Below, piece after piece: positions 11,406 through 28,018 of a stretch of DNA of 64,000 nt (the first letter of the stretch is position 1; every line of letters begins with the position of its first letter). The notes under the pieces are model-generated. The model saw only the letters and a list, made by a program, of their open reading frames with translations. It was not told where the DNA came from and ran no database searches. Location: NCBI RefSeq assembly GCF_022023855.1, contig NZ_CP059450.1, forward strand, positions 1,727,001-1,791,000. Direction: 5' to 3'. Both the position numbers and the translations under genes were made by a program. This DNA comes from Azospirillum brasilense. GTDB taxonomy: Bacteria > Pseudomonadota > Alphaproteobacteria > Azospirillales > Azospirillaceae.

Positions 11406-11739
11406 AGTGGCCCTCTCGCCATCGCGGCGGTCGCGTATCGGGAAGGCCAATAACAAAGTGATTTGTTAAAGAAATTCTGAACGCTGCCGGTCTTTCGGCC
11501 GATCGGAAGTTAATTCTGCTTGGGTCGGTGGTCATACAACAACGAAATCCCCGCAGGGCGGGGATGGTTACTGCATGAATTTTGACTCATGCAGAAGAAA
11601 ATTGTCGATTATTGATGCATTTGAGACTTCGGTTGTAAAAGAGAGGAAGGCACCTTTCTGAAAAGTGGTGTTCAAGAACGGCGCCGCCTTTGTCATTCCA
11701 CCTGGGGATGCAGAGGCGGCGCCGTCCGTGCGGATCGCG
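11406..11739 (-). promoter_or_regulatory. Upstream region of the adhesin operon with several inverted repeats
   Basis: A 334-bp gap, clearly AT-richer than its neighbours, between the end of the sugar-ABC operon and the adhesin start. It holds AACAAA-GTGA-TTTGTT (11452-11467), an 8-bp stem ATCCCCGC/GCGGGGAT (11547-11565), and CTGCATGA/TCATGCAG with an 8-nt spacer (11571-11594). These may be regulator sites or 5' leader structure. I saw no convincing sigma-70 boxes. Confidence 0.45.
11679..11724 (-). terminator. Strong stem-loop after the sugar ABC operon
   Basis: Perfect 11-bp inverted repeat CGGCGCCGCCT/AGGCGGCGCCG with a 24-nt loop, 16 bp after the ATPase stop. There is no good T-run after it, so it may terminate weakly or protect the transcript's 3' end. 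Confidence 0.55.
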
Positions 11740-12975
11740 TCAGGAGGCCGTCCGGATGGTGCCGACGCGCCCGCCGGCCAGGAAGTCCTCCGCGGCCCGC
11801 CCGCCGACGCGGAGGCCGCTGTCCTTCTCGAACAGGGAGAAGTCCTTCAGCAGGCAGTCGATGCCGACCGCCTCGCCGACGCGCAGCTCGCTGTAGCCGG
11901 GGACGGAGACCATCACCTCGTCCGTCAGGCCGCCGTCGTCGTCGTGGGCGGTGTGGACGCCGGATAGCTTCACCGAGATCAGCGATTCCGCCCCCACATG
12001 CTCGACCAGGGTGACGGTGCCCGGCAGGCTCTTGCCCTGGCCCGGCGGGACGACGGCGAGCGCGCCGGGGCGCAGGCCCAGCCACACCTTCATGCGGCTG
12101 CTGCCGCCCACCCGCTCGGTCCCAGGGCGCTCGGCCTTGTCGGGCAGCGGCAGGACGCTGTTGCCGATGCGCACGGTCATGCCCTCGACCTCGGCGTCGA
12201 TCAGGTTCATCGGCGGCGTGCCGATGAAGCGGGCGACGTAGGTGTTGGCCGGCTTCTCGTAGATCTCGCGCGGGGTGCCGTACTGCTGGAGATGTCCGTC
12301 GCGCATCAGCGCGATGCGGGTGCCCATGGTCATCGCCTCGATCTGGTCGTGGGTGACGTAGACGAAGTTGCCGCCGACCCGCTGGTGGAGCTGGGTGATC
12401 TCCGCCCGCATGGCGGTGCGCAGCTTGGCGTCGAGGTTCGACAGCGGCTCGTCCATCAGGAAGGCCGACGGCTCGCGCACCATGGCGCGGCCGAGCGCCA
12501 CGCGCTGGCGCTGGCCGCCCGACAGGGTGCGCGGGTGGCGGTCCAGCACCTTGGTCAGGGCCAGCGTGTCGGCGGTGCGCTCCACGAGGTCGCGCACCTC
12601 CGGCGAGTTCTCGATGCGGCGCTTGAAATAGTCGCCAATGAAGGGGATGTGGAACCACCAGCGGAACTGCCGCATGATCAGCGGGAAAGCGATGTTCCGG
12701 CGCACCGTCATGTGCGGGTAGAGCGCGTAGGACTGGAAGACGAAGGCCATGTCGCGGTCGCTGGGCGGCAGCTCGTCCACCCGCTTGCCGCCGAGATGGA
12801 TCTCGCCGCTGGTCACCGTCTCAAGCCCCGCGATCATGCGCAGGATGGTGGACTTGCCGCAGCCCGACGGGCCGAGCAGCACCAGGAATTCGTCGTCGCC
12901 GGCCTCCAGGCTCACGTTGTCGATCACGGTCAGGGAACCGAAGGACTTCGTGACGTTCTGCAGTTTGATAGCCAT
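11740..12975 (-). CDS. Sugar ABC transporter ATPase, MalK/UgpC type
   Basis: 411-residue cytoplasmic ATPase that powers uptake by the two permeases just upstream. Walker A GPSGCGKST, signature LSGGQRQRVALGRA, Walker B FLMDEPLSNLDAK and switch VTHDQ are all canonical, and a C-terminal TOBE/MalK-like regulatory region follows residue 270. It is longer than the usual 360-370 residues, partly because of an aromatic and charged insertion between residues about 105 and 135 (RQFRWWFHIPFIGDYFKRR), inside the helical subdomain. It is the last gene of the ten-gene operon, 61 bp after the second permease. The exact substrate cannot be read from it; a sugar or sugar acid fits the operon. Confidence 0.93.
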   Translation of the reverse strand: MAIKLQNVTKSFGSLTVIDNVSLEAGDDEFLVLLGPSGCGKSTILRMIAGLETVTSGEIHLGGKRVDELPPSDRDMAFVFQSYALYPHMTVRRNIAFPLIMRQFRWWFHIPFIGDYFKRRIENSPEVRDLVERTADTLALTKVLDRHPRTLSGGQRQRVALGRAMVREPSAFLMDEPLSNLDAKLRTAMRAEITQLHQRVGGNFVYVTHDQIEAMTMGTRIALMRDGHLQQYGTPREIYEKPANTYVARFIGTPPMNLIDAEVEGMTVRIGNSVLPLPDKAERPGTERVGGSSRMKVWLGLRPGALAVVPPGQGKSLPGTVTLVEHVGAESLISVKLSGVHTAHDDDGGLTDEVMVSVPGYSELRVGEAVGIDCLLKDFSLFEKDSGLRVGGRAAEDFLAGGRVGTIRTAS

Positions 12976-13036
12976 GGGCTTTTCCCTTTTATCTCTCGGG
13001 CGTGTCGGTGCAAGGGGGGGCGGGATCGGCCCACGG

Positions 13037-13858
13037 TCAGCCCTTGACGCCGCCGGTCGTCATGCCGGCGACCACGTAGCGTTGGACGAACAGGTAGAAG
13101 ACGACCGCCGGCAGCGTGTAGATGAAGCCGACCGCCATGACCGTGTGCACCGGGGTGCTCAACTCGCCCACGAAGCTGGCGAGGCCGACCGAGGCGGTGC
13201 GCAGGGCGTCGTCGCTGATGAAGGTCTGGGCGAAGACATACTCGTTCCAGCCGTGGAAGAAGGCGATCACCGCCGCGGCGGCCAACGTCGGCGCGATCAG
13301 CGGAACCACCACCGCCAGCACGATGCCGAGGCGGGAGCAGCCGTCCACCCTTGCGGCCTCCTCGATCTCCGACGGCACGCCGTCGATGGCGCCCTTCAGG
13401 ATCCAGGTCACCACCGGCACGGTGAAGGCCGTGTTGGCCAGGATCAAGCCGAGCAGCGTGTTGAGCAGCGACAGCTTGGTGAAGATGTCGTAGAGCGGCA
13501 CCACCAGCATCGCTTCCGGCAGCATCTGCGTCATGAACAGCGCGAAGCCGAGCAGCAGCTTGCCGTTGAAGGTCAGCCGCGACAGCGCGTAGGCCGGCAG
13601 CACCGACAGCAGGATGCTCAGCACCGTCGTGCCGACCGCGACGATCAGGCTGTTGATCAGCCATTGGCGCAGCGAGGTCTCGGTGAAGGCGTCGGCGTAG
13701 GTGCCGATCTGCGACAGCGTCGGCAGCAGGTTCGGCGTGTCGTCGAACAGCCGCTCCGACGGGGTGAGCGAGGTCACCAGCATCCAGTAGAGCGGGAAGG
13801 CCGCCACCCCGAGGAGGACCAGGACGGCGAGCGTGCGGGCCGTGGAATTGTGCTTCAT
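13037..13858 (-). CDS. Sugar ABC transporter permease, MalG type
   Basis: 273-residue inner-membrane protein with six predicted helices and the EAA loop EIEEAARVDGCSRLGI near residue 165-180, which contacts the ATPase. ATG at 13858 lies five bases after the stop of the first permease. Belongs to the CUT1 carbohydrate uptake group together with its neighbours. The first hydrophobic segment (TLAVLVLLGVAAFPLYW) follows a short basic N-terminus. Confidence 0.92.
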   Translation of the reverse strand: MKHNSTARTLAVLVLLGVAAFPLYWMLVTSLTPSERLFDDTPNLLPTLSQIGTYADAFTETSLRQWLINSLIVAVGTTVLSILLSVLPAYALSRLTFNGKLLLGFALFMTQMLPEAMLVVPLYDIFTKLSLLNTLLGLILANTAFTVPVVTWILKGAIDGVPSEIEEAARVDGCSRLGIVLAVVVPLIAPTLAAAAVIAFFHGWNEYVFAQTFISDDALRTASVGLASFVGELSTPVHTVMAVGFIYTLPAVVFYLFVQRYVVAGMTTGGVKG

Positions 13859-13863
13859 GGGGA

Positions 13864-14802
13864 TCACCGTTTCCCGGCGGCCTTTTCCGCCCGCGTCGAC
13901 AGCCAGAAATAGACCAGCGTCACCAGGATCGCGACGACCAGCCCGATGATGCCGACCGCCGCCGCGCGGCCGAGGTCGAGATAGACGAAGGCGCGGCGGT
14001 AGAGGTCGATGACCAGCGTGTTGGTCTCGCCCAGCGGGCCGCCCTGGGTCATCAGCCAGATCACGTCGAAGCGGCGCAGCGACCACACCGTGATGAGCAG
14101 GGTCAGCAGGGCCACCGACGGGCGGATGGTCGGCCAGGTGACGGCGCGGAAGATGCTGAGCCGGTCGGCCCCGTCGATCACCGCCGCCTCGCGCAGCTCC
14201 GACGGCACGCCCTGGAGGGCGGCCAGGATGACGACGGAGGAGAAGGGGAAGATCTGCCAGATCGTGGTGATCAGGATGGCCGGCAGGGCGAAGGACGGCT
14301 CGTCCAGCCAGTTCACCCCGCCGTCGGCGAAGCCCAGGAACTGGGCGAGGTGGCTGAACAGGCCGTACTGCGCGTTGAACATCCACACGAAGATCAGCGC
14401 CGCGGCGACCGGCGGGGCGGCCCAGGGGATGGTGACCAGCGCGCGGGCGATGCCGCGCCCCCGGAAGGTGCCGTCGAGCAGCAGCGCCGCCAGCAGGCCG
14501 AGCCCGATGGAGGCGACCACGCAGACCAGCGTGTAGACCGCGGTGACGCGCAGGACCTGATGGAACTCCGGGTCGAAGACGAGCTCGCGGTAATTGTCCA
14601 GCCCGACGTAGGTCTGCTGGCCGGGCGAGAGCAGCGAGGTGGAGGTGACGCTGAGCAGGAATTCCTGCACCAGCGGGTAGCCCTGGAAGACCAGGAGGTA
14701 GAGCGCCACCGGGGCGACGAAGAGTGCGGGAACCCAGCGGCCATGGTCGATCGGCGCGCGCCGCGCGGCGGCCCTGGGCTGGCTCACGGTCCTGCTCATC
14801 AT
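13864..14802 (-). CDS. Sugar ABC transporter permease, MalF/UgpA type
   Basis: 312-residue inner-membrane subunit paired with the MalG-type permease. Six predicted helices, an extended cytoplasmic N-terminus rich in Arg/Ala, and the EAA motif SELREAAVIDGADRLSIF around residue 200. Two adjacent ATG codons (14802 and 14799) could start it; no strong ribosome site favours one. It lies 54 bp after the binding-protein gene, the usual order binding protein, permease, permease, ATPase. Confidence 0.92.
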   Translation of the reverse strand: MMSRTVSQPRAAARRAPIDHGRWVPALFVAPVALYLLVFQGYPLVQEFLLSVTSTSLLSPGQQTYVGLDNYRELVFDPEFHQVLRVTAVYTLVCVVASIGLGLLAALLLDGTFRGRGIARALVTIPWAAPPVAAALIFVWMFNAQYGLFSHLAQFLGFADGGVNWLDEPSFALPAILITTIWQIFPFSSVVILAALQGVPSELREAAVIDGADRLSIFRAVTWPTIRPSVALLTLLITVWSLRRFDVIWLMTQGGPLGETNTLVIDLYRRAFVYLDLGRAAAVGIIGLVVAILVTLVYFWLSTRAEKAAGKR

Positions 14803-14856
14803 GATGCGGTATCCGGAGTTGGGACCGGCGGCGCCGGGGCGCCGCCAGTGAAAACC

Positions 14857-16122
14857 TTACTTCTGGGCGAGCACGCGGGCGGTGATCAGGCGCTGCGCCT
14901 CGTCCATGGCGGTCTGCGGGGCGACGCCGCCCTGGAGCACCTTGAGGAGCTGCTGGACGATGATCTGCTGGATCTCCGGCGCCTTGGTCTCAAGCCCCTG
15001 CGGCAGGGCCGGCACGCTGTTCGGGGTCTGCGCGTCGTAGACCTTCAGCCAGGGCATGGCCTGAAGCTCCTCCGGCGTGCGCTCCACCGTCGTCGCGACG
15101 TTGGCGGCGCCGAGCAGGGTCTGGAGTTCCTGCTGCTGCTGGGGCTGGAGCGCCCATTGCAGGAACTTGCCGGCGGCGTCCTTCACCTTGGTGTTGGCGT
15201 TGATGGTCACCGGAGCCAGGATCATGCCCTGCTCCTTGTGCGGGAAGGGCGACGGGGCGGCGGCGATGGGGTGCGCCTTGCCCTGCGAGGTCAGGATGGT
15301 GGCAACGCCGCCGTTGTCGATCTCCATGGCGACCTTGCCTTCCCAGAACATCCGCCGGTAGGTGGCGGCGTCGGTGCCCTTGGGGATCATGCCGGCGTCA
15401 TAGACGGTCTTGTAGGCGGCGACACCCGCCACGACCTCCGGGCTGTTGAAGGTCGGTGTGCCGTCCGGCTTGGACCAGCGCCCGCCGAAGCCATAGACGA
15501 AGTTGGTCAGGTCGTACCAGACGCCGCCGCGTTCGGCCATCGTGGCGCGGAAGGCGAAACCGTAGTTGCCGTCCTTCGTCGCCTCCTTGCCGAGCTTCAC
15601 GAACTCCTCGAAGGTCTTGGGCGGCGTGCCGTTGGGCAGCAGCGCGGCGTTGTAGACCATCGCGTAGTTGGCGGTGTCGAAGGCGAAGCCGTAGCGCTTG
15701 CCCTCGACCTTCATGTACTGGTCGGCGGCGGTGAAGGGATAGGCGCCGTCCTTCACGATGTCGTCGATCGGCAGGACCGACTTGGCGGCCACCGCGGCGT
15801 AGAACTCCGGTAGGTCGAAGCGGATCACGTCGGGGCCGCCGTTGCCGCCCATCTGCGTGAAGATGGTGGTGGCGAAGGAGGAAAAGGGGATGGTGACCGG
15901 CTTGACCTCGATGTCGGGCTGCGACTGGTTGAACTTTTCCACCCAGGCCTTCAGCCGGTCGCCGCGGCCGACCTCGGCGAAGTGGGACGCAGCGAAGGTC
16001 ACCACCGTCTTTCCGGATGACTGGGCCAGGGCGACCGACGCGGTGCCCAGCGCCAGGGCCGCGGCCAGCCCGCCGGCCAGAAGGGGGGTAATGCCCGTGA
16101 TTGCGCTCAGAAACGGCTTCAT
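14857..16122 (-). CDS. Sugar ABC transporter periplasmic binding protein (family 1)
   Basis: 421 residues with a signal peptide (hydrophobic core LLAGGLAAALALG, cleavage likely after SVALA near residue 34) and the layout of the MalE-like family: DVIRFDLPEF, then the hinge WYDLTNFVYGFGG and the C-terminal alpha lobe. It would capture the sugar or sugar acid in the periplasm for the permeases downstream. The ATG at 16122 has AGGAGGA upstream. A 101-bp gap with a possible stem-loop separates it from the dehydrogenase, so it may have an extra promoter. Confidence 0.92.
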   Translation of the reverse strand: MKPFLSAITGITPLLAGGLAAALALGTASVALAQSSGKTVVTFAASHFAEVGRGDRLKAWVEKFNQSQPDIEVKPVTIPFSSFATTIFTQMGGNGGPDVIRFDLPEFYAAVAAKSVLPIDDIVKDGAYPFTAADQYMKVEGKRYGFAFDTANYAMVYNAALLPNGTPPKTFEEFVKLGKEATKDGNYGFAFRATMAERGGVWYDLTNFVYGFGGRWSKPDGTPTFNSPEVVAGVAAYKTVYDAGMIPKGTDAATYRRMFWEGKVAMEIDNGGVATILTSQGKAHPIAAAPSPFPHKEQGMILAPVTINANTKVKDAAGKFLQWALQPQQQQELQTLLGAANVATTVERTPEELQAMPWLKVYDAQTPNSVPALPQGLETKAPEIQQIIVQQLLKVLQGGVAPQTAMDEAQRLITARVLAQK

Positions 16123-16171
16123 GCTGCGTCCTCCTCTGAATTTGTTCGTTTGCTGTCTTTTTTTGGTTGGT

Positions 16172-16211
16172 TTAGCCCGCAATCCCGGAACCATACCAGA
16201 GTATGCGGGCC
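16172..16211 (-). other. Possible stem-loop between dehydrogenase and binding-protein genes
   Basis: GCCCGCA/TGCGGGC, 7 bp, with a 26-nt loop, followed on the minus strand by an A-rich leader up to the ribosome site of the binding-protein gene. Could tune relative expression of catabolic and transport genes. It lacks a T-run. Confidence 0.35.
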
Positions 16212-16223
16212 GGTGATCGGGGT

Positions 16224-17804
16224 TCAGTGCCGGCCCAACGCTCCGTCGACCCGGCGCCACAACCCCAGCGGGTTGCCGTCGCGCAGGGCCTCCGGCAGCA
16301 GGTCGGCCGGGATGTCCTGGTAGCAGACGGGCCGCAGGAACCGCTCGATGGCCGCCGTGCCGACCGAGGTGGTGCGGCCGTCGGACGTGGCCGGGAAGGG
16401 GCCGCCATGGACCATGGCGTGGCAGACCTCGACGCCGGTCGGCCAGCCGTTCGCCAGGATGCGGCCGGCCTTGCGCTCCAGCGTCGGCAGCAGGACCGCC
16501 GCCGCCTTCGTGTCCGCCGTGTCCATTTGCAGGGTCGTTGTGAGCTGGCCGTCCAGCCTTTCCGCCACGGCGCGCAAAGACTCCAGATCCGGGCAGCGGA
16601 TGAGCAGCGAGGCGGCACCGAACACCTCCTCCCGCAGGGCCGGGTCGTCGAGGAAGGCGTCGGCGGTCGTGGCGAACAGCGCCGCCCGGCACCGGTTGGG
16701 AGCGTCGCCATCCAGCCCGCGCGCCAGCGTCTTCACGCGGGCGTTGCCGGCCAGGGCCGCCACCCCGGCGTCGAAGGCGGCGTGGATGCCCGGCGTCAGC
16801 ATGGTCGGCGCCGCGCTGCCGCCCAGCGCCTCCACGGCGGCGCTGACGAAGCGGTCGAGGTCCGGCCCGTCCACCGCCAGTAGGATGCCGGGGTTGGTGC
16901 AGAACTGCCCGGCGCCCATGGTCAGCGAGGCGACGAAGCCCCGGCCCAGAGCCTCCGCCCGCGCAGCGAGCGCCGCCGGCAGCAGGAAGACCGGGTTGAT
17001 GCTGCTCATCTCCGCGTAGACGGGAATCGGTTCCGGCCGCTTGGCCGCCACCTCCATCAACGCCACGCCGCCGCGGCGCGACCCGGTGAAGCCGACCGCC
17101 TTGATGCGCGGGTCGGCGACCAGCGCCGTGCCCACCGACGAGCCGGCGCCGAAGATCAGCGAGAAGACGCCCTCCGGCAGGCCGCACTCCGCGACGGCGG
17201 CCTGGACGGCGCGGCCGACCAGCTCCGACGTGCCGGGATGGGCGGAGTGGGCCTTGACCACCACCGGGCAGCCGACGGCGAAGGCCGAGGCGGTGTCGCC
17301 CCCGGCCACCGAGAAGGCCAGCGGGAAGTTGCTGGCGCCGAACACCGCGACGGGGCCGAGCGGGATACGGCGCTGGCGCAGGTCGGGGCGGGGCAGCGGC
17401 GCCCGCTCCGGCAGGGCCGGGTCGATGCGGGCGCCAAGCCAGCTTCCCTCCCGCACCACCGCGGCGAAGAGGCGGAGCTGGCCGACGGTGCGGCCCCGCT
17501 CCCCCTCCAGCCGGGCGCGCGGCAGGCCGCTTTCGGCCATGGCGCGGACGATCAACTCGTCGCCGAGGTCGAGGATGTTCCGGGCGACCGCCTCCAGGAA
17601 GACGGCCCGGTCCTCCGGCGCGGTCTCGCGGAAGCGGTCGAAGGCGTCCCAGGCGAGCTGGCAGGCGCGGTCCACCTCCGCCGTCCCGCCGCCGCCGAAG
17701 GCGGGTTCCAGCTTTGCCCCGGTGGACGGGTCGATGGCGTAGATCTCGCCGATGCGGCCGCGGTGGCTCTCGGCGCCGATCAGCATCATGCCGGTGAGGG
17801 TCAC
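16224..17804 (-). CDS. Alpha-ketoglutaric semialdehyde dehydrogenase (aldehyde dehydrogenase family)
   Basis: 526-residue soluble enzyme predicted to oxidise 2-oxoglutarate semialdehyde to 2-oxoglutarate with NAD(P)+, the last step of the non-phosphorylative pentonate and hexarate routes. Seen: [20 protein letters not shown] (cofactor region, near residue 155), catalytic Glu in [11 protein letters not shown] (near 270), catalytic Cys in [10 protein letters not shown] (near 305). This YAEMSSINP form and the length are those of the KGSADH subfamily known from Azospirillum sugar-acid pathways rather than generic aldehyde dehydrogenases. GTG at 17804 is chosen because AAGGA lies seven bases upstream; ATG at 17789 is an alternative. 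It follows the XylX-like dehydratase by 46 bp, its expected metabolic partner. Confidence 0.9.
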
Positions 17805-17850
17805 GGGCGGGTCCTTTCCTGGTCTCGGTGCTCTTGGTCTCGGGGCGGCA

Positions 17851-19035
17851 TCAGCCGAGCAGGCCGCGGCCCGCGAGGTTCCGCATCAGCGCGGCGGCGC
17901 CGAAGTCCCAGGGCGCGCAGTCGGCGCAATGGCGGACCCGGTTGGTCAGGCTGCCCAGCGCCGGGGCGGTGATGGTCACCACGTCGTCCAGCTTGTGGGT
18001 GAAGCCCTCGCCCGGACGGTCGCGGTCCTCGACCGGCGCGAACATGGTGCCGAGCAGCAGGACGAAGCCGTCCGGATACTGGTGGTTCTCCCCGATGGTG
18101 GCCTCCACCAGCTCCACCGGGTCGCGGCTGATCTGCGACATGGAGCTGGAGCCCTCCAGCCGGAAGCCGTCGCTGCCCTCGACCACCAGCCCAAGCTCGG
18201 CGCTGCGCACGCCGTCGAGCGTGAAGCGGTCGTCGAACAGGCGGATGAACGGACCGATGGAGCCGCTGGCGTTGTTGTCCTTCGCCTTGCCGAGCAGCAG
18301 GGCGGAGCGCCCCTCGACGTCGCGCAGGTTCATGTCGTTGCCGAGCGTCGCGCCGACGATGTCCCCGCGGCTGGAGGCCAGGACGGCGATTTCCGGCTCC
18401 GGGTTGTTCCACACGGAATAGGGCGGGATGCCGACATGGGCGCCGGTGCCGACCGCCGACATCGGCTGGCCCTTGGTGAAGATCTCGGCGTCGGGGCCGA
18501 TGCCGACCTCCAGATACTGCGACCACACCCCGCGGGCGATCAGCGCCTTCTTGACCTCCATGGCCTCCGGCGAGCCGGGCTTCAGGCTGGACAGGTCGCG
18601 CCCGATCAGCGCGTCGATGTCGGCGCGGATGGCCAGCGCCTTCTCCGGGGCGCCGCGCGCCTGCTCCTCGATGACGCGCTCCAGCAGGCTGACCACGAAG
18701 GTCACGCCGGACGCCTTCACCGCCTGGAGGTCGATGGGGGCCAGCAGCCAGGGCCGCTCCGGGTCGCGCCGGTCCTCGTCGGAGTTGGCGAGAAGCGTTG
18801 CAGCGGTGCCGATCCATTCACCGGGCAGGTCGCGGGCGATGGCCGCGGCGGCGCCGGTCTCCACCAGATCGCGCACGGTGGGCGCGTCGCGGCTGGTGAT
18901 GTCGAAGACGTCCCGGCCGCGCACGGCGATGACCGAGGGGCCGACGCCCGGGCGCCAGGCGCGCCCGACCAGCAGCGCGCCCTCGTCCGCCGGCAGGGCG
19001 GCGGCGGGGTCGAGGGGAAGGGGTCGCTTGCTCAT
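17851..19035 (-). CDS. FAH-family 2-keto-3-deoxy-aldonate dehydratase, XylX-like
   Basis: 394-residue soluble protein. The C-terminal two thirds is a fumarylacetoacetate-hydrolase fold with the metal-site region [20 protein letters not shown] and [20 protein letters not shown], then [18 protein letters not shown]. From memory this agrees closely, in length and motifs, with Caulobacter XylX, which dehydrates 2-keto-3-deoxy-D-xylonate to 2-oxoglutarate semialdehyde; the next gene encodes the dehydrogenase for that product. The ATG has GAGGAGAGGA upstream. The substrate sugar acid (xylonate, arabonate or another) cannot be fixed from sequence. No aldonate dehydratase or sugar dehydrogenase is present in the window, so earlier steps must be elsewhere or use the CoA genes. 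Confidence 0.85.
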
Positions 19036-19066
19036 GATTTCCTCTCCTCTTGCTTGCGCCGGGTCG

Positions 19067-19864
19067 TCACTTGCGCCGGAAGACCGGGCTGCGCTTTTCC
19101 TTGAAGGCGGCGCGCCCTTCGGCGGCGTCCGCGGTGGCGAAGCAGATGGTCTGCAGGTCGCGCTCGTACTCGATGGCCTTTTCCACCGGCATGGTGTGGG
19201 CGGCCTTCAGGTTCAGCTTCGCCGTCTCCGCCGCGATGGGCGCGCGGCTGGCGACGATGGCGGCGATCTCCTGCGCGCGGGCGAGCAGACGGTCGGCGGG
19301 CACGACCTCGCTGACGAGGCCCCAGGCCAGCGCCTTGTCCGCCGGGATCGGGTCGCCGGTCAGGATCATCATCGCGGCGTTGGAGGTGCCGATGGAGTGC
19401 GAGAGGAAGGCCGCCACGCCGCCGCCGCCGATCCAGCCGAGCTTGATCTCCGGCGCGCCGAACTGGGCGTTCTCCGACGCGATGCGGATGTCGCAGCTCA
19501 TCGCCGTCTCCAGCCCGCCGCCGAAGGCGTAGCCGTTGACCGCGGCGATGCTGGGCTTGCGCAGGCCGCGGATGGCGTCGCAATAGTCCTCGCGGTTGCG
19601 GAAGTTCCAGGCGGTGTCGTAGCGGTCCAGCTCGCGGATGTCGGAACCGCAGCAGAAGGCGCGCGGCCCGGCGCCGGTCAGCACGACGCAGCGGATGTCG
19701 TCGTCGGCGTTGCAGCGGGCGACGGCGGCGACCAGCTCCGCGGCCATCTCCGGGGTCACCGCGTTCAGCTTCTGCGGGCGGTCGAGGGTGATGGTGGCGA
19801 CGAAGCCGTCCACCGTGACGGTGACCGCGCCAAGCGCCGGATCGGGGGTGTTGAGCGAGTCCAT
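19067..19864 (-). CDS. Enoyl-CoA hydratase/isomerase family (crotonase) protein
   Basis: 265-residue soluble crotonase. Oxyanion-hole segments AFCCGSDIREL (near residue 70) and NGYAFGGGLETAMSCD (near 110) are present, and the first catalytic-type Glu in FGAPEIKLGW is kept. The position that carries the second Glu in classic hydratases (the MEMVLTG-like segment) reads AAMMILTG, so Met replaces it. That argues against simple 2-enoyl-CoA hydration and for an isomerase, lyase or thioester hydrolase role. It lies between the binding-protein-like gene (10 bp) and the XylX-like gene (31 bp), so it is surely co-transcribed. The physiological substrate is unknown. Confidence 0.88.
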   Translation of the reverse strand: MDSLNTPDPALGAVTVTVDGFVATITLDRPQKLNAVTPEMAAELVAAVARCNADDDIRCVVLTGAGPRAFCCGSDIRELDRYDTAWNFRNREDYCDAIRGLRKPSIAAVNGYAFGGGLETAMSCDIRIASENAQFGAPEIKLGWIGGGGVAAFLSHSIGTSNAAMMILTGDPIPADKALAWGLVSEVVPADRLLARAQEIAAIVASRAPIAAETAKLNLKAAHTMPVEKAIEYERDLQTICFATADAAEGRAAFKEKRSPVFRRK

Positions 19865-19874
19865 GGGATGGGCC

Positions 19875-21038
19875 TTATCGTTCGGCGCCGCCCGGTCCGG
19901 ACGTGTCCGGGCGGCTGGCGGCGTAGCGGTGTTGCAGACGGTCGAGCAAGGCGGCGTGCGGCGTGCCGTCGGCCAGCGCGTCGCGGATCATCGCGGCGGC
20001 TTCGGCCTGGAAAGCGATGTAGCCGGCGTGGCGCGGGCGGACATAGGCGGCCTCCAGCGTCGCGGCGGTGTTGCGGTAGAAACCGCCCCAGCGGGTGTTC
20101 ACCGCCGCGTCCGCCCAGGCGTCGCGGCGGCTCGGCTGGCCGTCATGGGCCGGGATGAAGCTCCGTTGCGCCTCGGCGCCGAGCAGCCAGCGCAGATGGT
20201 TGAGCAGGGCGGGCGTTACCTCGCAGCGCACGGAGACGCCGATGCCGGTGCCGCCCAGCGTCGAGCCGGGGCGCCCGTCCGCCGTGGCGCGCGGCGCGTC
20301 GGCGAAGGTCAGCGGCTTCTCGCCCGCTGCGGTGGGGGCCGCGTAGTTGACGTAGCCGTAGACCAGCGGGCAGAGCGCCACGTCGTCGGTGCGGGCCATG
20401 TGGCCGAGCAGCCCGATGGGGTTCAGCCCGCGCACCGCCGCCGGCACCCGCCCGGCCAGCGTCGCCATGAGGTCGAGCGCCTGCGTCCCCACCTCTGCCG
20501 AGACCAGCCGGTCGGGATCGGCCACCGCGGGCGGATCGCCGAAGGCCGTGGCCATGGACAGGAAGGTCAGGCAGGCGTGCGGCCCGGCCAGCGACAGGGC
20601 GACCGGCGCCCGCTCGGACAGGCTGGCCACCTCCGCCCAGGTGACGGGGATCGGCCCGTCCAGAAGGTCGACGCGGCAGGCCGTGACCTGCGTCGCCGCG
20701 TCGAGCGGCAGCGCCCAGTGCCGGTCGGCGAAGCGGTAGCTGGCGAGGCTCGGCCCGATGCTGTCGCGCTGCCAGCCGGCGAGGTCCCCGGCGGTGAACA
20801 GATCCTCCAGCGGGATCAGGCCGCGCTCCGCGACCGCCTCCCCGACATGGGGGTGGTCGAGGACGATCAGGTCGTAGCGGGCGCAGAGGTCACCGATCGG
20901 ATGGGCCTCGAAGCCTTCGAGCGGCTGCTTGTCCCAATCGATCGCGAGCCCGTCGCGCGCCTCGTCCAGCCCGGCGGCGGCTGCCGCCAAGGCGTTGTAG
21001 CCGCGCGGGTGGTCCCAGGTCAGCGCGCGGTAGCGCAT
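19875..21038 (-). CDS. Binding-protein-like protein without signal peptide
   Basis: 387 residues. The fold reads like a family 1 extracellular solute-binding protein (DLIVLDHPHVGEA, WALPLDAATQV, LCPLVYGYVNYA, GGTGIGVS), but the N-terminus MRYRALTWDHPRGYNAL is polar with no hydrophobic core or lipobox, and no better upstream start exists because the gene overlaps the CoA-transferase gene by 19 bp. It should therefore stay in the cytoplasm. A cytoplasmic ligand-binding or chaperone role for the CoA-transferase is possible; this is inference from position. The call as SBP-like is moderately sure, the localisation well supported. Confidence 0.75.
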   Translation of the reverse strand: MRYRALTWDHPRGYNALAAAAAGLDEARDGLAIDWDKQPLEGFEAHPIGDLCARYDLIVLDHPHVGEAVAERGLIPLEDLFTAGDLAGWQRDSIGPSLASYRFADRHWALPLDAATQVTACRVDLLDGPIPVTWAEVASLSERAPVALSLAGPHACLTFLSMATAFGDPPAVADPDRLVSAEVGTQALDLMATLAGRVPAAVRGLNPIGLLGHMARTDDVALCPLVYGYVNYAAPTAAGEKPLTFADAPRATADGRPGSTLGGTGIGVSVRCEVTPALLNHLRWLLGAEAQRSFIPAHDGQPSRRDAWADAAVNTRWGGFYRNTAATLEAAYVRPRHAGYIAFQAEAAAMIRDALADGTPHAALLDRLQHRYAASRPDTSGPGGAER

Positions 21039-22267
21039 GCCCGAACCTCCTCTTCCTCCGCATCCGGCTCGGTGGCGGCGACGACGCCGGCGGCCAGCAG
21101 GCGGTCGATGACCTCAGCGGTGAAGCCGGCGGCCTCCAGCACCTCACGGGTGTGCTCGCCGGTCAGAGGGGCGCCGCGCTCGACCTCCGACGGGGTCTTG
21201 GAGAACCGGATGGGGAAGCCCGGCGTCTTGACGCGGCCCTCGGTCGGGTGGTCGTACTCGACGAAGGTGCCGTTGTGCTTGATCTGCGGGTCGTTCACGA
21301 GGTCGGCGTAGCCGTAGACCGGCCCGGCCCAGACCCCGGCGGCGTTGAACAGTTCCAGCCATTCCGCGGAAGTCTTCGCGGTCAGCCGGGCGCGGGTCTT
21401 GGCGAAGATCTCGTCACGGCGCGACCAGCTGTCGGTCTCGTCCTCCATGTCGAGGAAGGACGGCTCGCCGATCAGTTCGCCCAGCAGCTTCAGCGGCGGG
21501 AAGGCCACGATGATGAAGCCGTCGCTGGTGGCGAAGGCGCCGTAGGGGGCGCGGATGTAGACATGGGCGTGCGGCTCGGCGGAGCGGGTCTGCGGCTTGC
21601 CGCCGACCGTGAAGACCGACAACTCCTGCATCTGGATCGTCGTGATGGCGTCCAGCATGTTGACCTGGACGAGTTGGCCCTCGCCGGTGCGCTCGCGGTG
21701 GAGCAGAGCGGCCAGCACGCCTTCGAAGGCGGTGTAGCCGGTGATCGCATCGACCAGATATTGGCCGGCGGGGGTCGGGGCCTCGCCCTCGCGGCCCGCC
21801 GACAGCATGGCGCCGGACATGCCCTGCAACAGCAGGTCCTGGCCCGGACGCTGGACGTAGGGGCCGGTCTCGCCATAGCCGGAAATCGACAGGTAGATCA
21901 GGCGCGGGTTGATCGCCGACAGCGATTCATAGTCCACGCCCAGCCGCTTGGCGACGCCGGGCCGGTAGTTCTGGAGGAACACGTCGGCGGTCTTGACCAG
22001 CTCCATCAGCAGGGCCTTGCCCTCGGTGTTCTTCAGGTCGACGGCGAGCGAGCGCTTGTTCCGGTTCAGCGACAGGAAGGAGACGTTCACCTTGTTGCCG
22101 GTGATGCCGCCGGCCGCGGTGTGGCGCTGCCACTCGCCGGTCACCGGCTCCACCTTCACCACGTCGGCGCCGAGGTCGCCCAGGCGCTGCGCCGCCAGCG
22201 GGCCGGCCATGGCGATGGAGCAGTCGAGCACACGGTAGCCGCTGAGGATGTTGCGTTTCTTGTCCAT
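21020..22267 (-). CDS. CaiB/BaiF-type (class III) CoA-transferase
   Basis: 415-residue soluble enzyme that would move CoA between carboxylic acids. Family marks: GYRVLDCSIAMAGPLAAQ at the N-terminus, LGADVVKVEP (near 33-41), NRNKRSLAVDLK, LQNYRPGVAKRLG, ISGYGETGPY, and LVDAITGY with Asp173 at the place of the family's catalytic Asp. The C-terminus has an acidic run. ATG at 22267 begins the homologous part; the same frame continues open further upstream but there covers the SDR gene. Its presence in a sugar-acid operon implies that a CoA thioester is made, which is not part of the standard oxidative pentose pathway. Confidence 0.9.
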   Translation of the reverse strand: MDKKRNILSGYRVLDCSIAMAGPLAAQRLGDLGADVVKVEPVTGEWQRHTAAGGITGNKVNVSFLSLNRNKRSLAVDLKNTEGKALLMELVKTADVFLQNYRPGVAKRLGVDYESLSAINPRLIYLSISGYGETGPYVQRPGQDLLLQGMSGAMLSAGREGEAPTPAGQYLVDAITGYTAFEGVLAALLHRERTGEGQLVQVNMLDAITTIQMQELSVFTVGGKPQTRSAEPHAHVYIRAPYGAFATSDGFIIVAFPPLKLLGELIGEPSFLDMEDETDSWSRRDEIFAKTRARLTAKTSAEWLELFNAAGVWAGPVYGYADLVNDPQIKHNGTFVEYDHPTEGRVKTPGFPIRFSKTPSEVERGAPLTGEHTREVLEAAGFTAEVIDRLLAAGVVAATEPDAEEEEVRACATAR

Positions 22268-22335
22268 GATGTCCGGGTCTTGTTGCCGTGGATCCGCCGG
22301 CCATGGCGGAAGGATGGGGCGGAAGGATAGGTTGG

Positions 22336-23100
22336 TCAGCCGTTGGTCGCCGGGGCTTGCGCGAAGAAGGCGCGGTTCCAGACGGGGCTGATGAGGATTT
22401 CGTTGACGCAGACGTGGGGCGGCATCTCGGCCACGAAGCGGATGGTGCGGCCCAGATCCTCGGGCTGGAGCAGGCGCGCCATCTCCTCCGCCGGAGGCGG
22501 GGAGGGGCGCTGGCCCAGCAGGTCGGTCGCCACCTCGCCCGGCATGACCACGCAGGAGCGCAGGCCGTTGCGCCATTCCTCCATGTTCAGGCTGTGGCTC
22601 AGCGTCACCAGCGCCTGCTTCGTGGCGTTGTAGCCGGGTCCGCCGAGGACGAGCGCGTGCCGCCCGACCCAGGAGGACACGATGATGACGGTGCCGGACC
22701 GGCGGTCCCGCATGGCGGGCAGCACCGACTGGATGGCGTGCATGGTGCCGTTGAGGTTGACGTCGACCAGCCGCCGCCAGCCCTCCGTCCCGAGGTCGCG
22801 GAAGCTGCGGTTGGGCAGGTTCATCCCGGCGCTGGCGACCAGCGTGTCGATTCGCCCGTGGCGATCGAGGATCGCCGCCGCCACGCGCCGCACCGCCGCC
22901 TCGTCGGCCACATCGAGGACCGCGGTCTCGGCCCTGCCGCCGGCGTTGCGGATGGACTCCGCCACGCGGTCGAGCGCGTCTTCGCGCCGTCCGGACAGGA
23001 CGACGGTGGCGCCGCCCTGCGCCAGCGCCCGCGCGCCGGCCTCCCCGATTCCGCTGCCGCCGCCGGTGACCCAGGCGACGCTGTTCGCAAGAACGCTCAT
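22336..23100 (-). CDS. Short-chain dehydrogenase/reductase
   Basis: 254-residue Rossmann-fold oxidoreductase, first gene of the operon. NAD(P) motif TGGGSGIG (residues 12-19), NAG-like ASAGMN, catalytic Ser in IVSSWVG and YNATK. Arg after the second strand (SGRRED) hints at NADP preference. ATG at 23100 is taken because the fold starts there; the open frame upstream to 23253 has low-complexity coding quality and would overlap the operator region. It probably oxidises or reduces a hydroxyl of the sugar-derived substrate before or after CoA transfer. Confidence 0.9.
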   Translation of the reverse strand: MSVLANSVAWVTGGGSGIGEAGARALAQGGATVVLSGRREDALDRVAESIRNAGGRAETAVLDVADEAAVRRVAAAILDRHGRIDTLVASAGMNLPNRSFRDLGTEGWRRLVDVNLNGTMHAIQSVLPAMRDRRSGTVIIVSSWVGRHALVLGGPGYNATKQALVTLSHSLNMEEWRNGLRSCVVMPGEVATDLLGQRPSPPPAEEMARLLQPEDLGRTIRFVAEMPPHVCVNEILISPVWNRAFFAQAPATNG

Positions 23101-23212: not shown

Positions 23213-23302
23213 GTGACCGCTAACGTGACCGGTAACATGATTGGTTGGGGCAATCAAGCATCTTCGGCGAGCGATAACGTTAGCGTTCGCGTGACCGCTA
23301 AC
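23213..23302. promoter_or_regulatory. Operator array between LacI-type regulator and catabolic operon
   Basis: GTGACCGCTAAC at 23213-23224 is directly abutted by GTGACCGGTAAC at 23225-23236; an exact GTGACCGCTAAC recurs at 23291-23302; GATAACGTTAGC lies at 23273-23284. The second copy extends to ACGTGACCGGTAACAT, close to the palindromic CCGG-centred operators of GntR/LacI-type regulators. The 332-bp gap between divergent genes (23101-23432) contains nothing else I can identify except this AT-richer core. Confidence 0.7.
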
Positions 23303-23432
23303 ATGAAATGCGCTATGGATTGTGGAAATGGCGCCGCGCCCGGCTTGCAACGGCGGGCGCGGCCATGCACAAGAAGGCGGCCGGTTCGTGCCCGAAGGCG
23401 GGCCGGCGGAGGCAGGAAAGAGGTCATCCCAG

Positions 23433-24494
23433 GTGTCGGACGAAGGACAGCTTTCGCTCAGAAAGGCGGAGTCACGGCGGCGCTCCGCGACCCGCGCGGT
23501 GACGATGGCCGATGTGGCGCAGGCCGCCGGCGTCTCCACGCAGACGGTCTCGCGCGCGCTCCGCGATCCGCGCAGCGTCGGCCCGGACACGCTCGCCCGC
23601 ATCGAGGAGGCGGTTCGCGAAACCCGCTACGTGCAGAACCTGGCGGCGAGCCACCTCGCCTCCAACCGCAGCATGACGGTGGCGGCGATCATCCCGACCA
23701 TCTCCGCCTCGATCTTCGCGGAAACCATCCAGGGCCTGACCGACGTCCTGCTGCCGGAGGGCTATCAGGTCTTCCTCGGCCACACCGACTACATGGCCGG
23801 GCGGGAGGAGTCGCTGGTCCGCAGCTTCAGCGGGCGGCGCCCCGACGGCTTCTTCATCATCGGCACCCGCCACACCCAGGAAACCACGGCCCTCCTGAAG
23901 CGCACCGGGGTTCCGGTGGTCGAAAGCTGGAGCTGGACGAACCGCCCCGTCGACATGCTGGTCGGCTTCTCCAACCACGCCGCCCTGATGAGCGTGGTCG
24001 ACCATCTGGTGGGGCGCGGCTACCGCCGGTTGGCCTTCACGGGTGTCATGAAGCCGGGCGACCACCGCGCCAAGGAGCGTCTGAAGGGCTTCCAGGACGC
24101 CCATGAGCGTCATTTCCCGGGCGTGACGCCGCGCGTCGTCACGGTCGCCAGCGGACCGATGGTAATGGCGACCGGCGTGGAGCTGCTGAAGCTGGTCCGG
24201 GAACAGCATCCCGACACCGACGCCGTGGTGTTCGTCAGCGACGTGCTGGCCTCCGGCGCCCTGCTGGCCTGCAGCGGCCTGGGAATCTCGGTGCCGAAGG
24301 ATCTGGCGATCACCGGTTTCGGCAATTACGACATCGCCGGGCAACTGACGCCGGGCCTGACCACCATCGCCATCGCCAGCCGCAAGATCGGCACGGAATC
24401 CGCCAACCTCCTGTTGCGGCGGATGCAGGGCGGCGAGGTGGAGAACCGCACCCAGGACGTGGGGTTCGAACTGCTGGTGCGGGGCAGTGCCTGA
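23433..24494 (+). CDS. LacI-family transcriptional regulator
   Basis: About 353 residues. LacI helix-turn-helix TMADVAQAAGVSTQTVSRALRD with hinge helix NLAASHLAS (about residues 24-72), then a periplasmic-binding-protein-like ligand domain (VAAIIPTISASIFAETIQG, ITGFGNYDIAGQLTPGLTTI). The GTG at 23433 has GGAAAGAGG nine bases upstream; ATG at 23322 in the same frame would add a long basic, Gly-rich tail and place coding over the operators, so it is less likely. It is divergent from the ten-gene catabolic operon and probably represses it until a sugar-acid inducer binds; the array between them fits. Confidence 0.9.
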   Translation: MSDEGQLSLRKAESRRRSATRAVTMADVAQAAGVSTQTVSRALRDPRSVGPDTLARIEEAVRETRYVQNLAASHLASNRSMTVAAIIPTISASIFAETIQGLTDVLLPEGYQVFLGHTDYMAGREESLVRSFSGRRPDGFFIIGTRHTQETTALLKRTGVPVVESWSWTNRPVDMLVGFSNHAALMSVVDHLVGRGYRRLAFTGVMKPGDHRAKERLKGFQDAHERHFPGVTPRVVTVASGPMVMATGVELLKLVREQHPDTDAVVFVSDVLASGALLACSGLGISVPKDLAITGFGNYDIAGQLTPGLTTIAIASRKIGTESANLLLRRMQGGEVENRTQDVGFELLVRGSA

Positions 24495-27259: not shown

Positions 27260-27289
27260 CTCCGCCAAGCCATTCCTTTGGATGACGTC

Positions 27290-28018
27290 ATGAACAAACT
27301 GTCGCTCGCCTTCATCGCCGCGCTGGGCTTCGCCATGCCCGCCCAGGCCCACCAGATCTGGATCGAGCAGCCCGACCAGGGCAACGCCACGATCCGCTTC
27401 GGGGAGTTCGGCGAGAACCTGCGCGAAGTCTCGCCCGGCCTGCTCGACAAGTTCGGCAAGCCGGCCGGCACGCTGCTCTCCGCCAAGGGAGAGCAGAAGG
27501 TCGAGGCCGCCAAGACCGCGGACGGCTTCGCGCTGCCCTTCAAGGCCGCCAACGGTGAGAGCATCGTCGCCGAGGACACGCTCTACCCGCTCTACACGTG
27601 GAAGCAGGGCGACAAGGAAACCACCAACTGGTTCCACCCCGCTGCGCGCCTGATCACCGGCTTCGCCGAGCAGACGCCGAAGCTGACGCTGGATCTGGTG
27701 CCCACCGGCAAGCCGGGCCAGTTCAAGCTGGTCTTCCAGGGCCAGCCCAAGGCCAAGACCAAGGTGATGCTGGTCACCCAGTCCGGCTGGGCCAAGGAGG
27801 AGCACAGCGACGAGCAGGGTCTGGTCACCTTCGACCTGCCGTGGAAGGGCACCTACGTGGCCGAGGTCAGCCTGAACGAGCGCACCCCCGGCGAACGCCA
27901 GGGTGCCAACGGCGCCGAGAAGTATGACGGCGTCAGCTACGTCACCACGGTGACCTACGTCCACCCCGAGGGTCTGGCGCCGGTCCCCGCCGGCCCGGCG
28001 GCGACGCCCAACAAATGA
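27290..28018 (+). CDS. DUF4198-like periplasmic protein
   Basis: 242 residues with a clean signal peptide (LAFIAALGFAMPAQA) giving a mature N-terminus that begins HQIWIEQ. DUF4198 proteins accompany metal-uptake genes; a mature N-terminal His, with further His residues, suggests metal binding. The rest is beta-rich (LTLDLVPTGKPGQFKLVF, GTYVAEVSLNE). ATG at 27290 is preferred to an in-frame TTG at 27278. It follows the TonB receptor by 30 bp and overlaps the next gene as ATGA. Role inferred: periplasmic partner of ferric-siderophore import. Confidence 0.8.
   Translation: MNKLSLAFIAALGFAMPAQAHQIWIEQPDQGNATIRFGEFGENLREVSPGLLDKFGKPAGTLLSAKGEQKVEAAKTADGFALPFKAANGESIVAEDTLYPLYTWKQGDKETTNWFHPAARLITGFAEQTPKLTLDLVPTGKPGQFKLVFQGQPKAKTKVMLVTQSGWAKEEHSDEQGLVTFDLPWKGTYVAEVSLNERTPGERQGANGAEKYDGVSYVTTVTYVHPEGLAPVPAGPAATPNK

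What the first reader, a model, noticed from the sequence alone, without database searches (positions are those of the whole stretch)
11740..23100. Ten-gene operon joining CoA-transferase and crotonase to the oxidative sugar-acid route
Standard xylonate or arabonate operons carry a dehydratase, XylX or KdaD, and KGSADH plus a transporter. This one instead starts with SDR, CaiB-type CoA-transferase, a cytoplasmic binding-protein-like protein and a crotonase that lacks the second hydratase Glu. A sugar acid may be activated as a CoA thioester, oxidised or isomerised, and then fed to the XylX-like enzyme and KGSADH to give 2-oxoglutarate. I do not know a described pathway of this make-up.
Basis: partly seen in the sequence, partly recalled or inferred. 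Interest (0 to 1): 0.7.

Follow-up and report, generated by a model that had tools for sequence, protein, structure and literature searches.

The report
Sugar-acid operon using CoA-dependent dehydration
This soil bacterium carries an operon that appears to break down a five-carbon sugar acid by attaching coenzyme A to it and removing water with a fatty-acid-type enzyme, in place of the usual sugar-acid dehydratase; no description of such a route was found, and its core genes recur in many bacteria.

Summary
The ten-gene operon (11740-23100, - strand) is real and the family labels hold, but one stated feature is wrong: the crotonase has both hydratase glutamates, here and in 77 of 77 other loci aligned. 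CoA-transferase, cytoplasmic binding-protein-like protein (cSBP) and crotonase form a module: adjacent, in that order, on one strand in 74 of 80 GTDB loci. No IlvD/EDD sugar-acid dehydratase was found in those 80 loci; 16 of 76 XylX regions without the module have one. In most distant cSBP loci an unrelated MaoC dehydratase stands in for the crotonase; three loci without a detected CoA-transferase have an enolase-family protein instead. Module-linked XylX proteins are not one clade. Best reading: SDR makes an aldonate; CoA-transferase plus crotonase dehydrate it as a CoA thioester, as CaiB/CaiD do with carnitine; XylX and the aldehyde dehydrogenase finish to 2-oxoglutarate. This is a Weimberg-type route whose dehydratase is CoA-dependent. 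All reactions are inferred; so are the substrate (D-lyxonate, by stereochemistry) and the role of cSBP. My paper searches found nothing like it.

The parts
22336..23100 (-). SDR oxidoreductase (proposed aldose 1-dehydrogenase)
   Evidence: PF00106 159 bits; S-Y-K motif by eye; none of the 25 best NCBIfam models shown reaches its cut-off. Substrate not shown.
21020..22267 (-). Family III (CaiB/BaiF) CoA-transferase
   Evidence: PF02515 359 bits; best solved relative succinate--hydroxymethylglutarate CoA-transferase; Asp173 in 76 of 76 aligned sequences, own copy included, one short row dropped.
19875..21038 (-). cSBP: cytoplasmic protein with the fold of a sugar-binding ABC solute-binding protein, no signal peptide; overlaps the CoA-transferase gene by 19 bp
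19067..19864 (-). Crotonase (enoyl-CoA hydratase type), both catalytic Glu present
   Evidence: PF00378 219 bits; E119, E139, G73, G117 in 78 of 78 aligned sequences, own copy included; nearest solved relative 3-hydroxypropionyl-CoA dehydratase.
17851..19035 (-). XylX-like FAH-family protein, proposed D-2-keto-3-deoxypentonate dehydratase; single copy in the genome
   Evidence: 400.8 bits to 9kkt, 63.6 bits to Sulfolobus 2-keto-3-deoxy-D-arabinonate dehydratase 2q18; E184, K188, E213, E215, D234, K252 in 37 of 37 full-length module-linked relatives; single copy.
16224..17804 (-). Aldehyde dehydrogenase, proposed 2-oxoglutarate semialdehyde dehydrogenase (KGSADH)
   Evidence: 508 bits to 3v4c and 464 bits to 1eyy; none of the 25 best NCBIfam models shown reaches its cut-off. 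The KGSADH label rests on recall of the type III enzymes.
14857..16122 (-). Extracellular sugar-binding protein of the ABC transporter
   Evidence: PF01547 115 bits; N-terminal signal-like stretch by eye.
13864..14802 (-). ABC permease 1 (UgpA/MalF type)
   Evidence: PF00528 70.5 bits.
13037..13858 (-). ABC permease 2
   Evidence: Position and sequence; orthologs at 75-99% in Azospirillum, Chelatococcus and Paracoccus loci.
11740..12975 (-). ABC ATPase (UgpC/MalK type)
   Evidence: PF00005 109 bits; UgpC model 395 bits, below its cut-off of 432.
23505..24494 (+). LacI-family regulator, GntR/IdnR-like (ORF opens at 23322; 329-aa start as in the Azospirillum orthologs)
   Evidence: PF00356 52 bits; GntR (Pseudomonas) model 307 bits, below cut-off 400; ortholog in 35 of 80 module loci.
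23213..23304 (.). Operator-like repeats (23213-23226, 23225-23238, 23291-23304) between regulator and SDR
   Evidence: 7 window matches with up to 2 mismatches against 1.11 expected, 0 of 100 shuffles as many; strict pattern occurs only here in the genome, 3 hits, reversed control 1; similar sites in other LacI-bearing loci, many of them upstream of the CoA-transferase, no shuffled control.

Best explanation
The operon imports a sugar or sugar acid and degrades it by a Weimberg-type route in which the aldonate dehydratase is replaced by a CoA cycle. Steps: the ABC transporter imports the substrate; the SDR oxidises an aldose to an aldonolactone or aldonate; the CoA-transferase moves CoA onto the aldonate; the crotonase removes the C2 proton and the C3 hydroxyl, giving an enol that becomes 2-keto-3-deoxyaldonyl-CoA; the CoA-transferase passes that CoA to the next aldonate and frees 2-keto-3-deoxypentonate; the XylX-like enzyme dehydrates this to 2-oxoglutarate semialdehyde; the aldehyde dehydrogenase makes 2-oxoglutarate. 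This is CaiB/CaiD logic (carnitine to crotonobetaine) applied to a sugar acid. Shown here: gene set, catalytic residues, module conservation, exchange of dehydratase types, several lineages of XylX beside the module, a local operator. Inferred: every reaction, the CoA cycle, the C5 substrate. From recalled crotonase stereochemistry (syn elimination, 3S, trans-enoyl) plus D-selective XylX kin, D-lyxonate is the predicted natural substrate (about 0.25). cSBP most likely binds the aldonate or its lactone in the cytosol and presents it to the dehydrating enzymes.
For: (1) CoAT-cSBP-crotonase adjacent in 74 of 80 GTDB loci. (2) In the 4 genomes whose local operon lacks the CoA-transferase (L061, L062, L064, L066) an 81-84% ortholog lies elsewhere (next best 36-38%), beside a LacI ortholog (50-54%) and the same operator-like site. 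(3) 0 of 80 module loci hold IlvD/EDD; 16 of 76 XylX regions without the module do; for XylX-bearing loci 0 of 39 against 16 of 76, p = 0.0011, relatedness not corrected. (4) Of 29 further cSBP regions (one, L247, a standard module locus), 26 have a CoA-transferase and 24 of those a MaoC (17) or crotonase (8, one with both); the 3 without a CoA-transferase have an enolase-family (MR/MLE) protein (Pfam in L229). In L248 MaoC replaces crotonase while CoAT (73%), cSBP (55%), LacI and XylX stay. In L252 the gene beside cSBP is UxuA, mannonate dehydratase. (5) Module-linked XylX proteins are not one clade (AU p = 2e-43, 21 against 33 rows); one pair sits inside the IlvD-linked clade. (6) XylX keeps metal ligands and Glu/Lys residues in 37 of 37, as described in PMC6336799 and PMC9795676 (passages). 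(7) Of 80 loci, 70 hold an SDR of the counted clusters and 13 a lactonase. (8) The regulator is GntR/IdnR-like.
Against: No enzyme assay or growth datum. XylX was found in only 39 of 80 loci and the window-type aldehyde dehydrogenase in 9 of 80 (9 of the 80 loci are under 20 kb), so other loci finish differently: 15 have a hydroxyacid dehydrogenase and 15 a kinase-like gene. Family III CoA-transferases often sit beside crotonases in other pathways (recalled), so adjacency alone is weak. The exchange of dehydratases is not clean: an enolase-family protein is also present in 7 of the 17 MaoC regions, in L249 and L251, and in 18 of 80 module loci (14 of them one cluster, often beside L-fucose-type genes). 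L245 has an IlvD some 8 kb away. S. meliloti L230 and L231 have CoAT and cSBP but no hydratase found nearby. In two of the three regions without CoA-transferase (L226, L227) the contig ends within 3 kb of cSBP, so one could be cut off. The changes of XylX lineage may include losses as well as gains. No aldonyl-CoA is in the papers searched, and cSBP's role is unexplained.
Confidence: 0.6

Rival explanations
1. The CoA genes handle a non-sugar part of the imported compound (for example a hydroxyacyl substituent on a sugar), while SDR, XylX and the aldehyde dehydrogenase degrade the sugar with a dehydratase encoded elsewhere.
For: Family III CoA-transferase plus crotonase is a common fatty- or hydroxy-acid pair (recalled); the genome has 3 IlvD/EDD proteins and 8 enolase-superfamily matches, 6 over the cut-off, that could supply a dehydratase.
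Against: The strict operator pattern is found only here; exchange of crotonase for MaoC, and cSBP beside an enolase-family protein or UxuA; several XylX lineages beside the module.
Confidence: 0.14
2. The substrate is a branched or O-methylated sugar acid (such as apionate or a 3-O-methyl aldonate), and CoA activation allows a beta-elimination that metal-dependent dehydratases cannot do.
For: Would explain why a CoA route is kept; 16 of 80 module loci hold GH141-type proteins, a family used on complex pectin (recalled).
Against: XylX and the aldehyde dehydrogenase in the window point to a plain 2-keto-3-deoxypentonate; none of the ten operon genes looks like a demethylation enzyme.
Confidence: 0.12
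3. The SDR oxidises C3 of an aldonate and the CoA ester of the 3-ketoacid is cleaved by the crotonase (retro-Claisen).
For: Some crotonase-fold enzymes cleave beta-diketones (recalled).
Against: Both hydratase Glu kept in 78 of 78 aligned sequences; MaoC, a dehydratase fold, replaces the crotonase; cleavage would not feed XylX.
Confidence: 0.07
4. CoA-transferase and crotonase epimerise an aldonate by dehydration and rehydration, and an IlvD or enolase-family dehydratase elsewhere does the net dehydration.
For: Crotonases are reversible (recalled); dehydratases exist elsewhere in the genome.
Against: Dehydrating a 2-hydroxyacyl-CoA gives an enol that should tautomerise to the keto form, a poor intermediate for rehydration (reasoning); no IlvD found in 80 loci.
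Confidence: 0.07

Closest known systems
Weimberg pathway (Route II pentose oxidation; Caulobacter xyl operon, Herbaspirillum huttiense clusters)
   Same: XylX-type FAH dehydratase, semialdehyde dehydrogenase, SDR, sugar transport; end product 2-oxoglutarate (inferred).
   Different: No IlvD/EDD or enolase-family sugar-acid dehydratase in the operon; a CoA-transferase and crotonase stand in its place, plus a cytoplasmic binding protein.
CaiB/CaiD of carnitine metabolism (recalled)
   Same: Family III CoA-transferase working with a crotonase; proposed CoA recycling from product to next substrate.
   Different: Below the L-carnitine CoA-transferase model (140 bits against a cut-off of 413); no other cai-type genes in the operon; sugar context; cSBP gene in between.
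Extracytoplasmic sugar-binding proteins of ABC transporters (maltose, trehalose, SmoF binders)
   Different: No signal peptide, encoded between two CoA enzymes, hardly alike to the operon's own binding protein (BLASTP 28 bits).
COG3970 D-2-keto-3-deoxypentonate dehydratase (C785_RS13680, PMC6336799)
   Same: FAH family, catalytic Glu, Lys and acidic metal ligands.
   Different: Supply of its substrate is proposed here to be CoA-dependent.

Membership tests
Weimberg-type operon | IlvD/EDD or enolase-family aldonate dehydratase encoded with the pathway | tested here: not met
   None among the ten genes; the genome's 3 IlvD/EDD lie elsewhere. In relatives: IlvD in 0 of 80 module loci, enolase-family protein in 18 of 80.
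Weimberg-type operon | 2-keto-3-deoxypentonate dehydratase | tested here: met
   By sequence and residues only; activity not tested.
Weimberg-type operon | 2-oxoglutarate semialdehyde dehydrogenase | tested here: inconclusive
   Aldehyde dehydrogenase close to 3v4c and 1eyy, but no KGSADH model over its cut-off among those shown.
Family III CoA-transferase | PF02515 domain and catalytic Asp | tested here: met
   359 bits; D173 in 76 of 76 aligned, own copy included.
Crotonase hydratases/dehydratases | Both catalytic Glu and oxyanion-hole Gly | tested here: met
   E119, E139, G73, G117 in 78 of 78 aligned, own copy included.
Carnitine CaiB/CaiD system | L-carnitine CoA-transferase equivalog and cai gene partners | tested here: not met
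   140 bits against cut-off 413; none of the operon proteins scanned is of a carnitine-transporter, acyl-CoA dehydrogenase or CoA-ligase family.
ABC solute-binding protein | Binding-protein fold | tested here: met
ABC solute-binding protein | Export signal | tested here: not met
   Fold begins at residue 2 and the gene overlaps CoAT by 19 bp; median CoAT-cSBP gap 1 bp in the 74 adjacent loci.
COG3970 D-KDP dehydratase | Acidic metal ligands and Glu/Lys dyad | tested here: met
   E213, E215, D234, E184, K188, K252 in 37 of 37 full-length module-linked relatives.
Any of these | Demonstrated reaction and substrate | not testable with these tools
   Needs bench work.

The most novel reading that the evidence does not exclude
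There is a general, undescribed way to dehydrate sugar acids as CoA thioesters, built on a cytoplasmic sugar-binding protein and a family III CoA-transferase, with crotonase for one C3 configuration (D-lyxonate, D-mannonate type) and MaoC for the mirror configuration (L-rhamnonate, L-lyxonate, D-ribonate type), spread over Pseudomonadota, Actinomycetota and Bacteroidota and interchangeable with enolase-family and UxuA dehydratases.
Probability: 0.45. Interest if true: 0.85.

Novelty: new variant of a known kind. Interest (0 to 1): 0.74.

Why it matters
Oxidative sugar-acid routes are thought to rest on Fe-S, Mg- or Mn-dependent dehydratases. A CoA-based alternative would add a new chemistry to sugar catabolism, explain many operons now annotated as 'enoyl-CoA hydratase' and 'extracellular solute-binding protein' in rhizobia, Azospirillum, sphingomonads and streptomycetes, give an iron-free dehydration step for making 2-oxoglutarate from sugars, and raise the question of what a sugar-binding protein does in the cytosol.

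Tried and rejected
Rejected: the crotonase as a member lacking a hydratase Glu (both present). Rejected: cSBP as a mis-called exported protein (fold starts at residue 2; in most distant rows printed the shared T/AWxHxR motif also comes within about 20 residues of a likely start; exact starts of distant genes were not settled). Rejected: the module as an Azospirillum oddity (80 loci returned of 281 confirmed stretches). Left open: branched or methylated sugar acids; an L-fucose link (GH141-type, mutarotase, fuconolactonase-like and FAH genes beside the module in sphingomonads and Nitrospirillum), which looks like a neighbouring pathway. Led nowhere: cSBP in a class sample of 385 genomes (6 with a match, this genome included); DUF4432 in papers (2 papers, judged unrelated from the listing); identity of entry 9kkt (0 papers); lyxonate (45 papers, 15 listed; among the titles only PMC6336799 deals with bacterial pentonate catabolism); searches for the gene set or for aldonyl-CoA names (nothing relevant in the listings). 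The first cSBP tree held two rows in a wrong frame and was replaced.

The FastTree shows at least 3 label changes on starred branches (6 by parsimony), which can be gains or losses; an AU test on 54 rows rejects one clade. It also counted the window's own copy among the relatives (78 and 76; 77 and 75 without it).

Rows dropped before counts: L001-L006 in the count of 80; near-copies L008-L011 and rows outside the length limits (106 rows used), 21 of 34 module rows, all 16 IlvD-linked rows and 17 of 56 other rows, five long branches left out; one short CoA-transferase row (L070); XylX fragments L017 and L049 not among the 37. Of 78 XylX matches this genome's and a second partial one in G127 were not fetched (76 regions, 17 under 19.5 kb). 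L048, L049, L061, L062, L064 and L066 count as misses in 74 of 80. Of the plasmid hits I opened ten; five (L230-L234), picked by me from the divergent ones, entered the 29 regions; L218-L221 and L235 are standard module loci and were not counted there. Pfam was run on L252 only of the three UxuA-type neighbours.
Full report

A CORRECTION. It does not: E119 (GGGLE) and E139 (FGAPE) are 20 residues apart and align with the glutamates of the solved hydratases shown; both are invariant in 78 of 78 aligned sequences, one being the window's own copy, with both glycines checked. The CoA-transferase Asp173 is invariant in 76 of 76 (own copy included), and six XylX residues in 37 of 37 full-length module-linked relatives. 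For FAH-type dehydratases the literature names three acidic metal ligands and a Glu/Lys dyad (PMC9795676, passages seen), and for C785_RS13680 a specific Glu182 with a 34-fold preference for D- over L-2-keto-3-deoxypentonate (PMC6336799, section 9 read and other passages seen); the window's E184 is my candidate for that Glu, through the alignment to the Sulfolobus enzyme.

THE CORE IS A THREE-GENE MODULE. A scan of the genome collection (one genome for each of 84,980 species) with a cSBP alignment gave 281 confirmed stretches, of which 80 loci were returned. CoA-transferase, cSBP and crotonase are adjacent in that order on one strand in 74 of 80. In four Rhizobium loci (L061, L062, L064, L066) the CoA-transferase is missing from its place; all four genomes carry an 81-84% identical copy elsewhere, while the next best match listed is 36-38% identical, and that copy lies beside a LacI ortholog (50-54%) with the same operator-like site. 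In one of them (L217) the gene next to the CoA-transferase is an aldehyde dehydrogenase whose best family is 2-oxoglutarate semialdehyde dehydrogenase (549 bits, cut-off 770).

COMPANIONS. Among the 80 loci: an SDR of the counted clusters in 70, DUF4432 (aldose-epimerase-like) in 52, XylX in 39, LacI ortholog in 35, Gfo/Idh and TIM-barrel proteins in 28 each, a beta-propeller lactonase in 13, window-type aldehyde dehydrogenase in 9 (families; counts). Epimerase-like, SDR and lactonase genes make an aldonate a likely substrate of the CoA-transferase. The regulator belongs near GntR/IdnR (307 and 192 bits, below cut-offs). The strict operator pattern occurs in this genome only upstream of this operon (3 hits, reversed control 1), so the operon may hold the whole dedicated pathway; weaker sites were not searched genome-wide.

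WHERE IS THE DEHYDRATASE? Routes into XylX known to me need an aldonate dehydratase, and none is in the operon. IlvD/EDD relatives (three references from this genome) were found in 0 of 80 module loci. In a class sample of 385 genomes, 77 carry XylX; of 76 regions fetched none showed cSBP and 16 have IlvD/EDD within about 9.5 kb. For loci with XylX, 0 of 39 against 16 of 76 gives p = 0.0011 (relatedness not corrected; some regions on both sides are cut by contig ends). In a FastTree of 106 XylX rows the module-linked ones fall in separate places: starred branches force at least 3 label changes, parsimony gives 6 (gains or losses), and a Sphingopyxis pair sits inside the IlvD-linked clade. An AU test on 54 of these rows rejects a single clade of module-linked XylX (p = 2e-43). 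So more than one XylX lineage lies beside the same module.

THE EXCHANGES. 29 further cSBP regions were examined: five from the first class sample, five picked from divergent plasmid hits and 19 from a phylum sample of 398 genomes (L225-L234, L236-L254); L247 among them is a standard module locus. Where measured against the window, the divergent cSBPs in L225-L234 are 35-42% identical. 26 regions carry a family III CoA-transferase; 24 of these also carry an acyl-CoA dehydratase: MaoC in 17, crotonase in 8, one (L240) with both. The two without are pSymB of two S. meliloti strains (L230, L231). The three regions without a detected CoA-transferase (L226, L227, L229) have no MaoC or crotonase but an enolase-family protein, a family that includes aldonate dehydratases (Pfam checked in L229); in L226 and L227 the contig ends within 3 kb of cSBP. 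In L252 the gene adjacent to cSBP is UxuA, D-mannonate dehydratase, with a more distant type of CoA-transferase and crotonase 6-8 kb away; L253 and L254 look alike but were not scanned. L248 is the sharpest case: CoA-transferase 73%, cSBP 55%, LacI and XylX as in the window's branch, but a MaoC with a GD-x(3)-H motif and no crotonase found in 19.9 kb. On the cSBP tree of 35 rows the crotonase-linked rows are one side of a branch (support 100) and the rows without CoA-transferase another (99). MaoC and crotonase have different folds (recalled); what they share is dehydration of 3-hydroxyacyl-CoA. That CoA-transferase plus either enzyme stands where other cSBP loci have a classical sugar-acid dehydratase is the main argument for CoA-dependent aldonate dehydration. 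Against it: an enolase-family protein is also present in 7 of the 17 MaoC regions and in 18 of the 80 module loci, so the exchange is not exclusive.

HOW IT WOULD WORK. Dehydrating an aldonyl-CoA across C2-C3 gives an enol that tautomerises to 2-keto-3-deoxyaldonyl-CoA; handing its CoA to the next aldonate yields the same product as a classical dehydratase, with CoA only catalytic. This is the carnitine CaiB/CaiD scheme (recalled). Stereochemistry (recalled: syn elimination, 3S product, pro-2R proton, trans-enoyl): C2-OH and C3-OH must lie on the same side, on the left in a Fischer drawing. Among D-pentonates only D-lyxonate fits, and its product is D-2-keto-3-deoxypentonate, which the characterised XylX relative prefers. 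The C6 analogue is D-mannonate, the substrate of the UxuA found beside one divergent cSBP. MaoC-type hydratases give 3R (recalled) and would take the mirror set (L-rhamnonate, L-lyxonate, D-ribonate); 6 of the 17 MaoC regions hold an L-rhamnose-mutarotase family gene (L225, L228, L232, L236, L242, L246), and L234 holds RhaT. This is inference, not a test; D-lyxonate gets about 0.25.

WEAK POINTS. Half of the module loci show no XylX nearby and most lack the window's aldehyde dehydrogenase, so downstream routes differ; 15 have a 2-hydroxyacid dehydrogenase and 15 a kinase-like gene. One further region (L245) has IlvD some 8 kb from cSBP. cSBP's function is open: it occurs with four unrelated dehydratase types, so it probably deals with the sugar acid and not with CoA; a lactonase or epimerase activity is not excluded.

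LITERATURE. All ten searches of the open-access library were used. Those aimed at the gene set, at class III CoA-transferases with aldonates, at aldonyl-CoA names, at MaoC with mutarotase and at cytoplasmic binding proteins gave nothing relevant (listings only). Two papers were opened, for passages and one section. Subscription papers and preprints are not covered.

VERDICT. A real, widespread and, as far as these searches go, undescribed catabolic module. It fails one tested defining feature of the Weimberg pathway (no conventional dehydratase in the operon) and would work like CaiB/CaiD without being a member of that system.

Noticed in passing
window 3653-10054 (-): Very long repeat-rich ORF (2133 aa) with many alike repeats, by eye probably a secreted adhesin; the neighbouring ORF 9765-11456 may be its N-terminal part or a partner.
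   Followed up: no
window 24776-27259 and 27278-28018 (+): By eye a TonB-dependent receptor with an N-terminal signalling-type domain, followed by a small secreted-looking protein, just beyond the regulator.
   Followed up: no
   Followed up: partly
L252, 9426-11872: cSBP relative directly beside UxuA (D-mannonate dehydratase); L253 and L254 look alike by homology search but were not scanned.
   Followed up: partly
L014-L020, L026, L034, L043, L044, L050, L053 and relatives: In many of these the module lies beside GH141-type and pectin-lyase-like proteins, L-rhamnose-mutarotase family, fuconolactonase-like, enolase-family and FAH genes, as in an L-fucose route, plus 2-hydroxyacid dehydrogenase and kinase-like genes.
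   Followed up: partly
L230, 10830-13122 (S. meliloti 1021 pSymB): CoA-transferase and cSBP pair with no hydratase found within about 10 kb; in strain ml45 (L231) an IS21 element lies just downstream.
   Followed up: partly
loci with DUF4432 (cluster c4, 52 of 80): A DUF4432 aldose-epimerase-like protein is linked to an SDR and to the module; only 2 papers in the library mention DUF4432 and, from the listing, neither is about its function.
   Followed up: partly
PDB entry 9kkt: Solved FAH-family protein very close to the window's XylX (400.8 bits) with no paper found in the library; its deposited name gives no function.
   Followed up: partly
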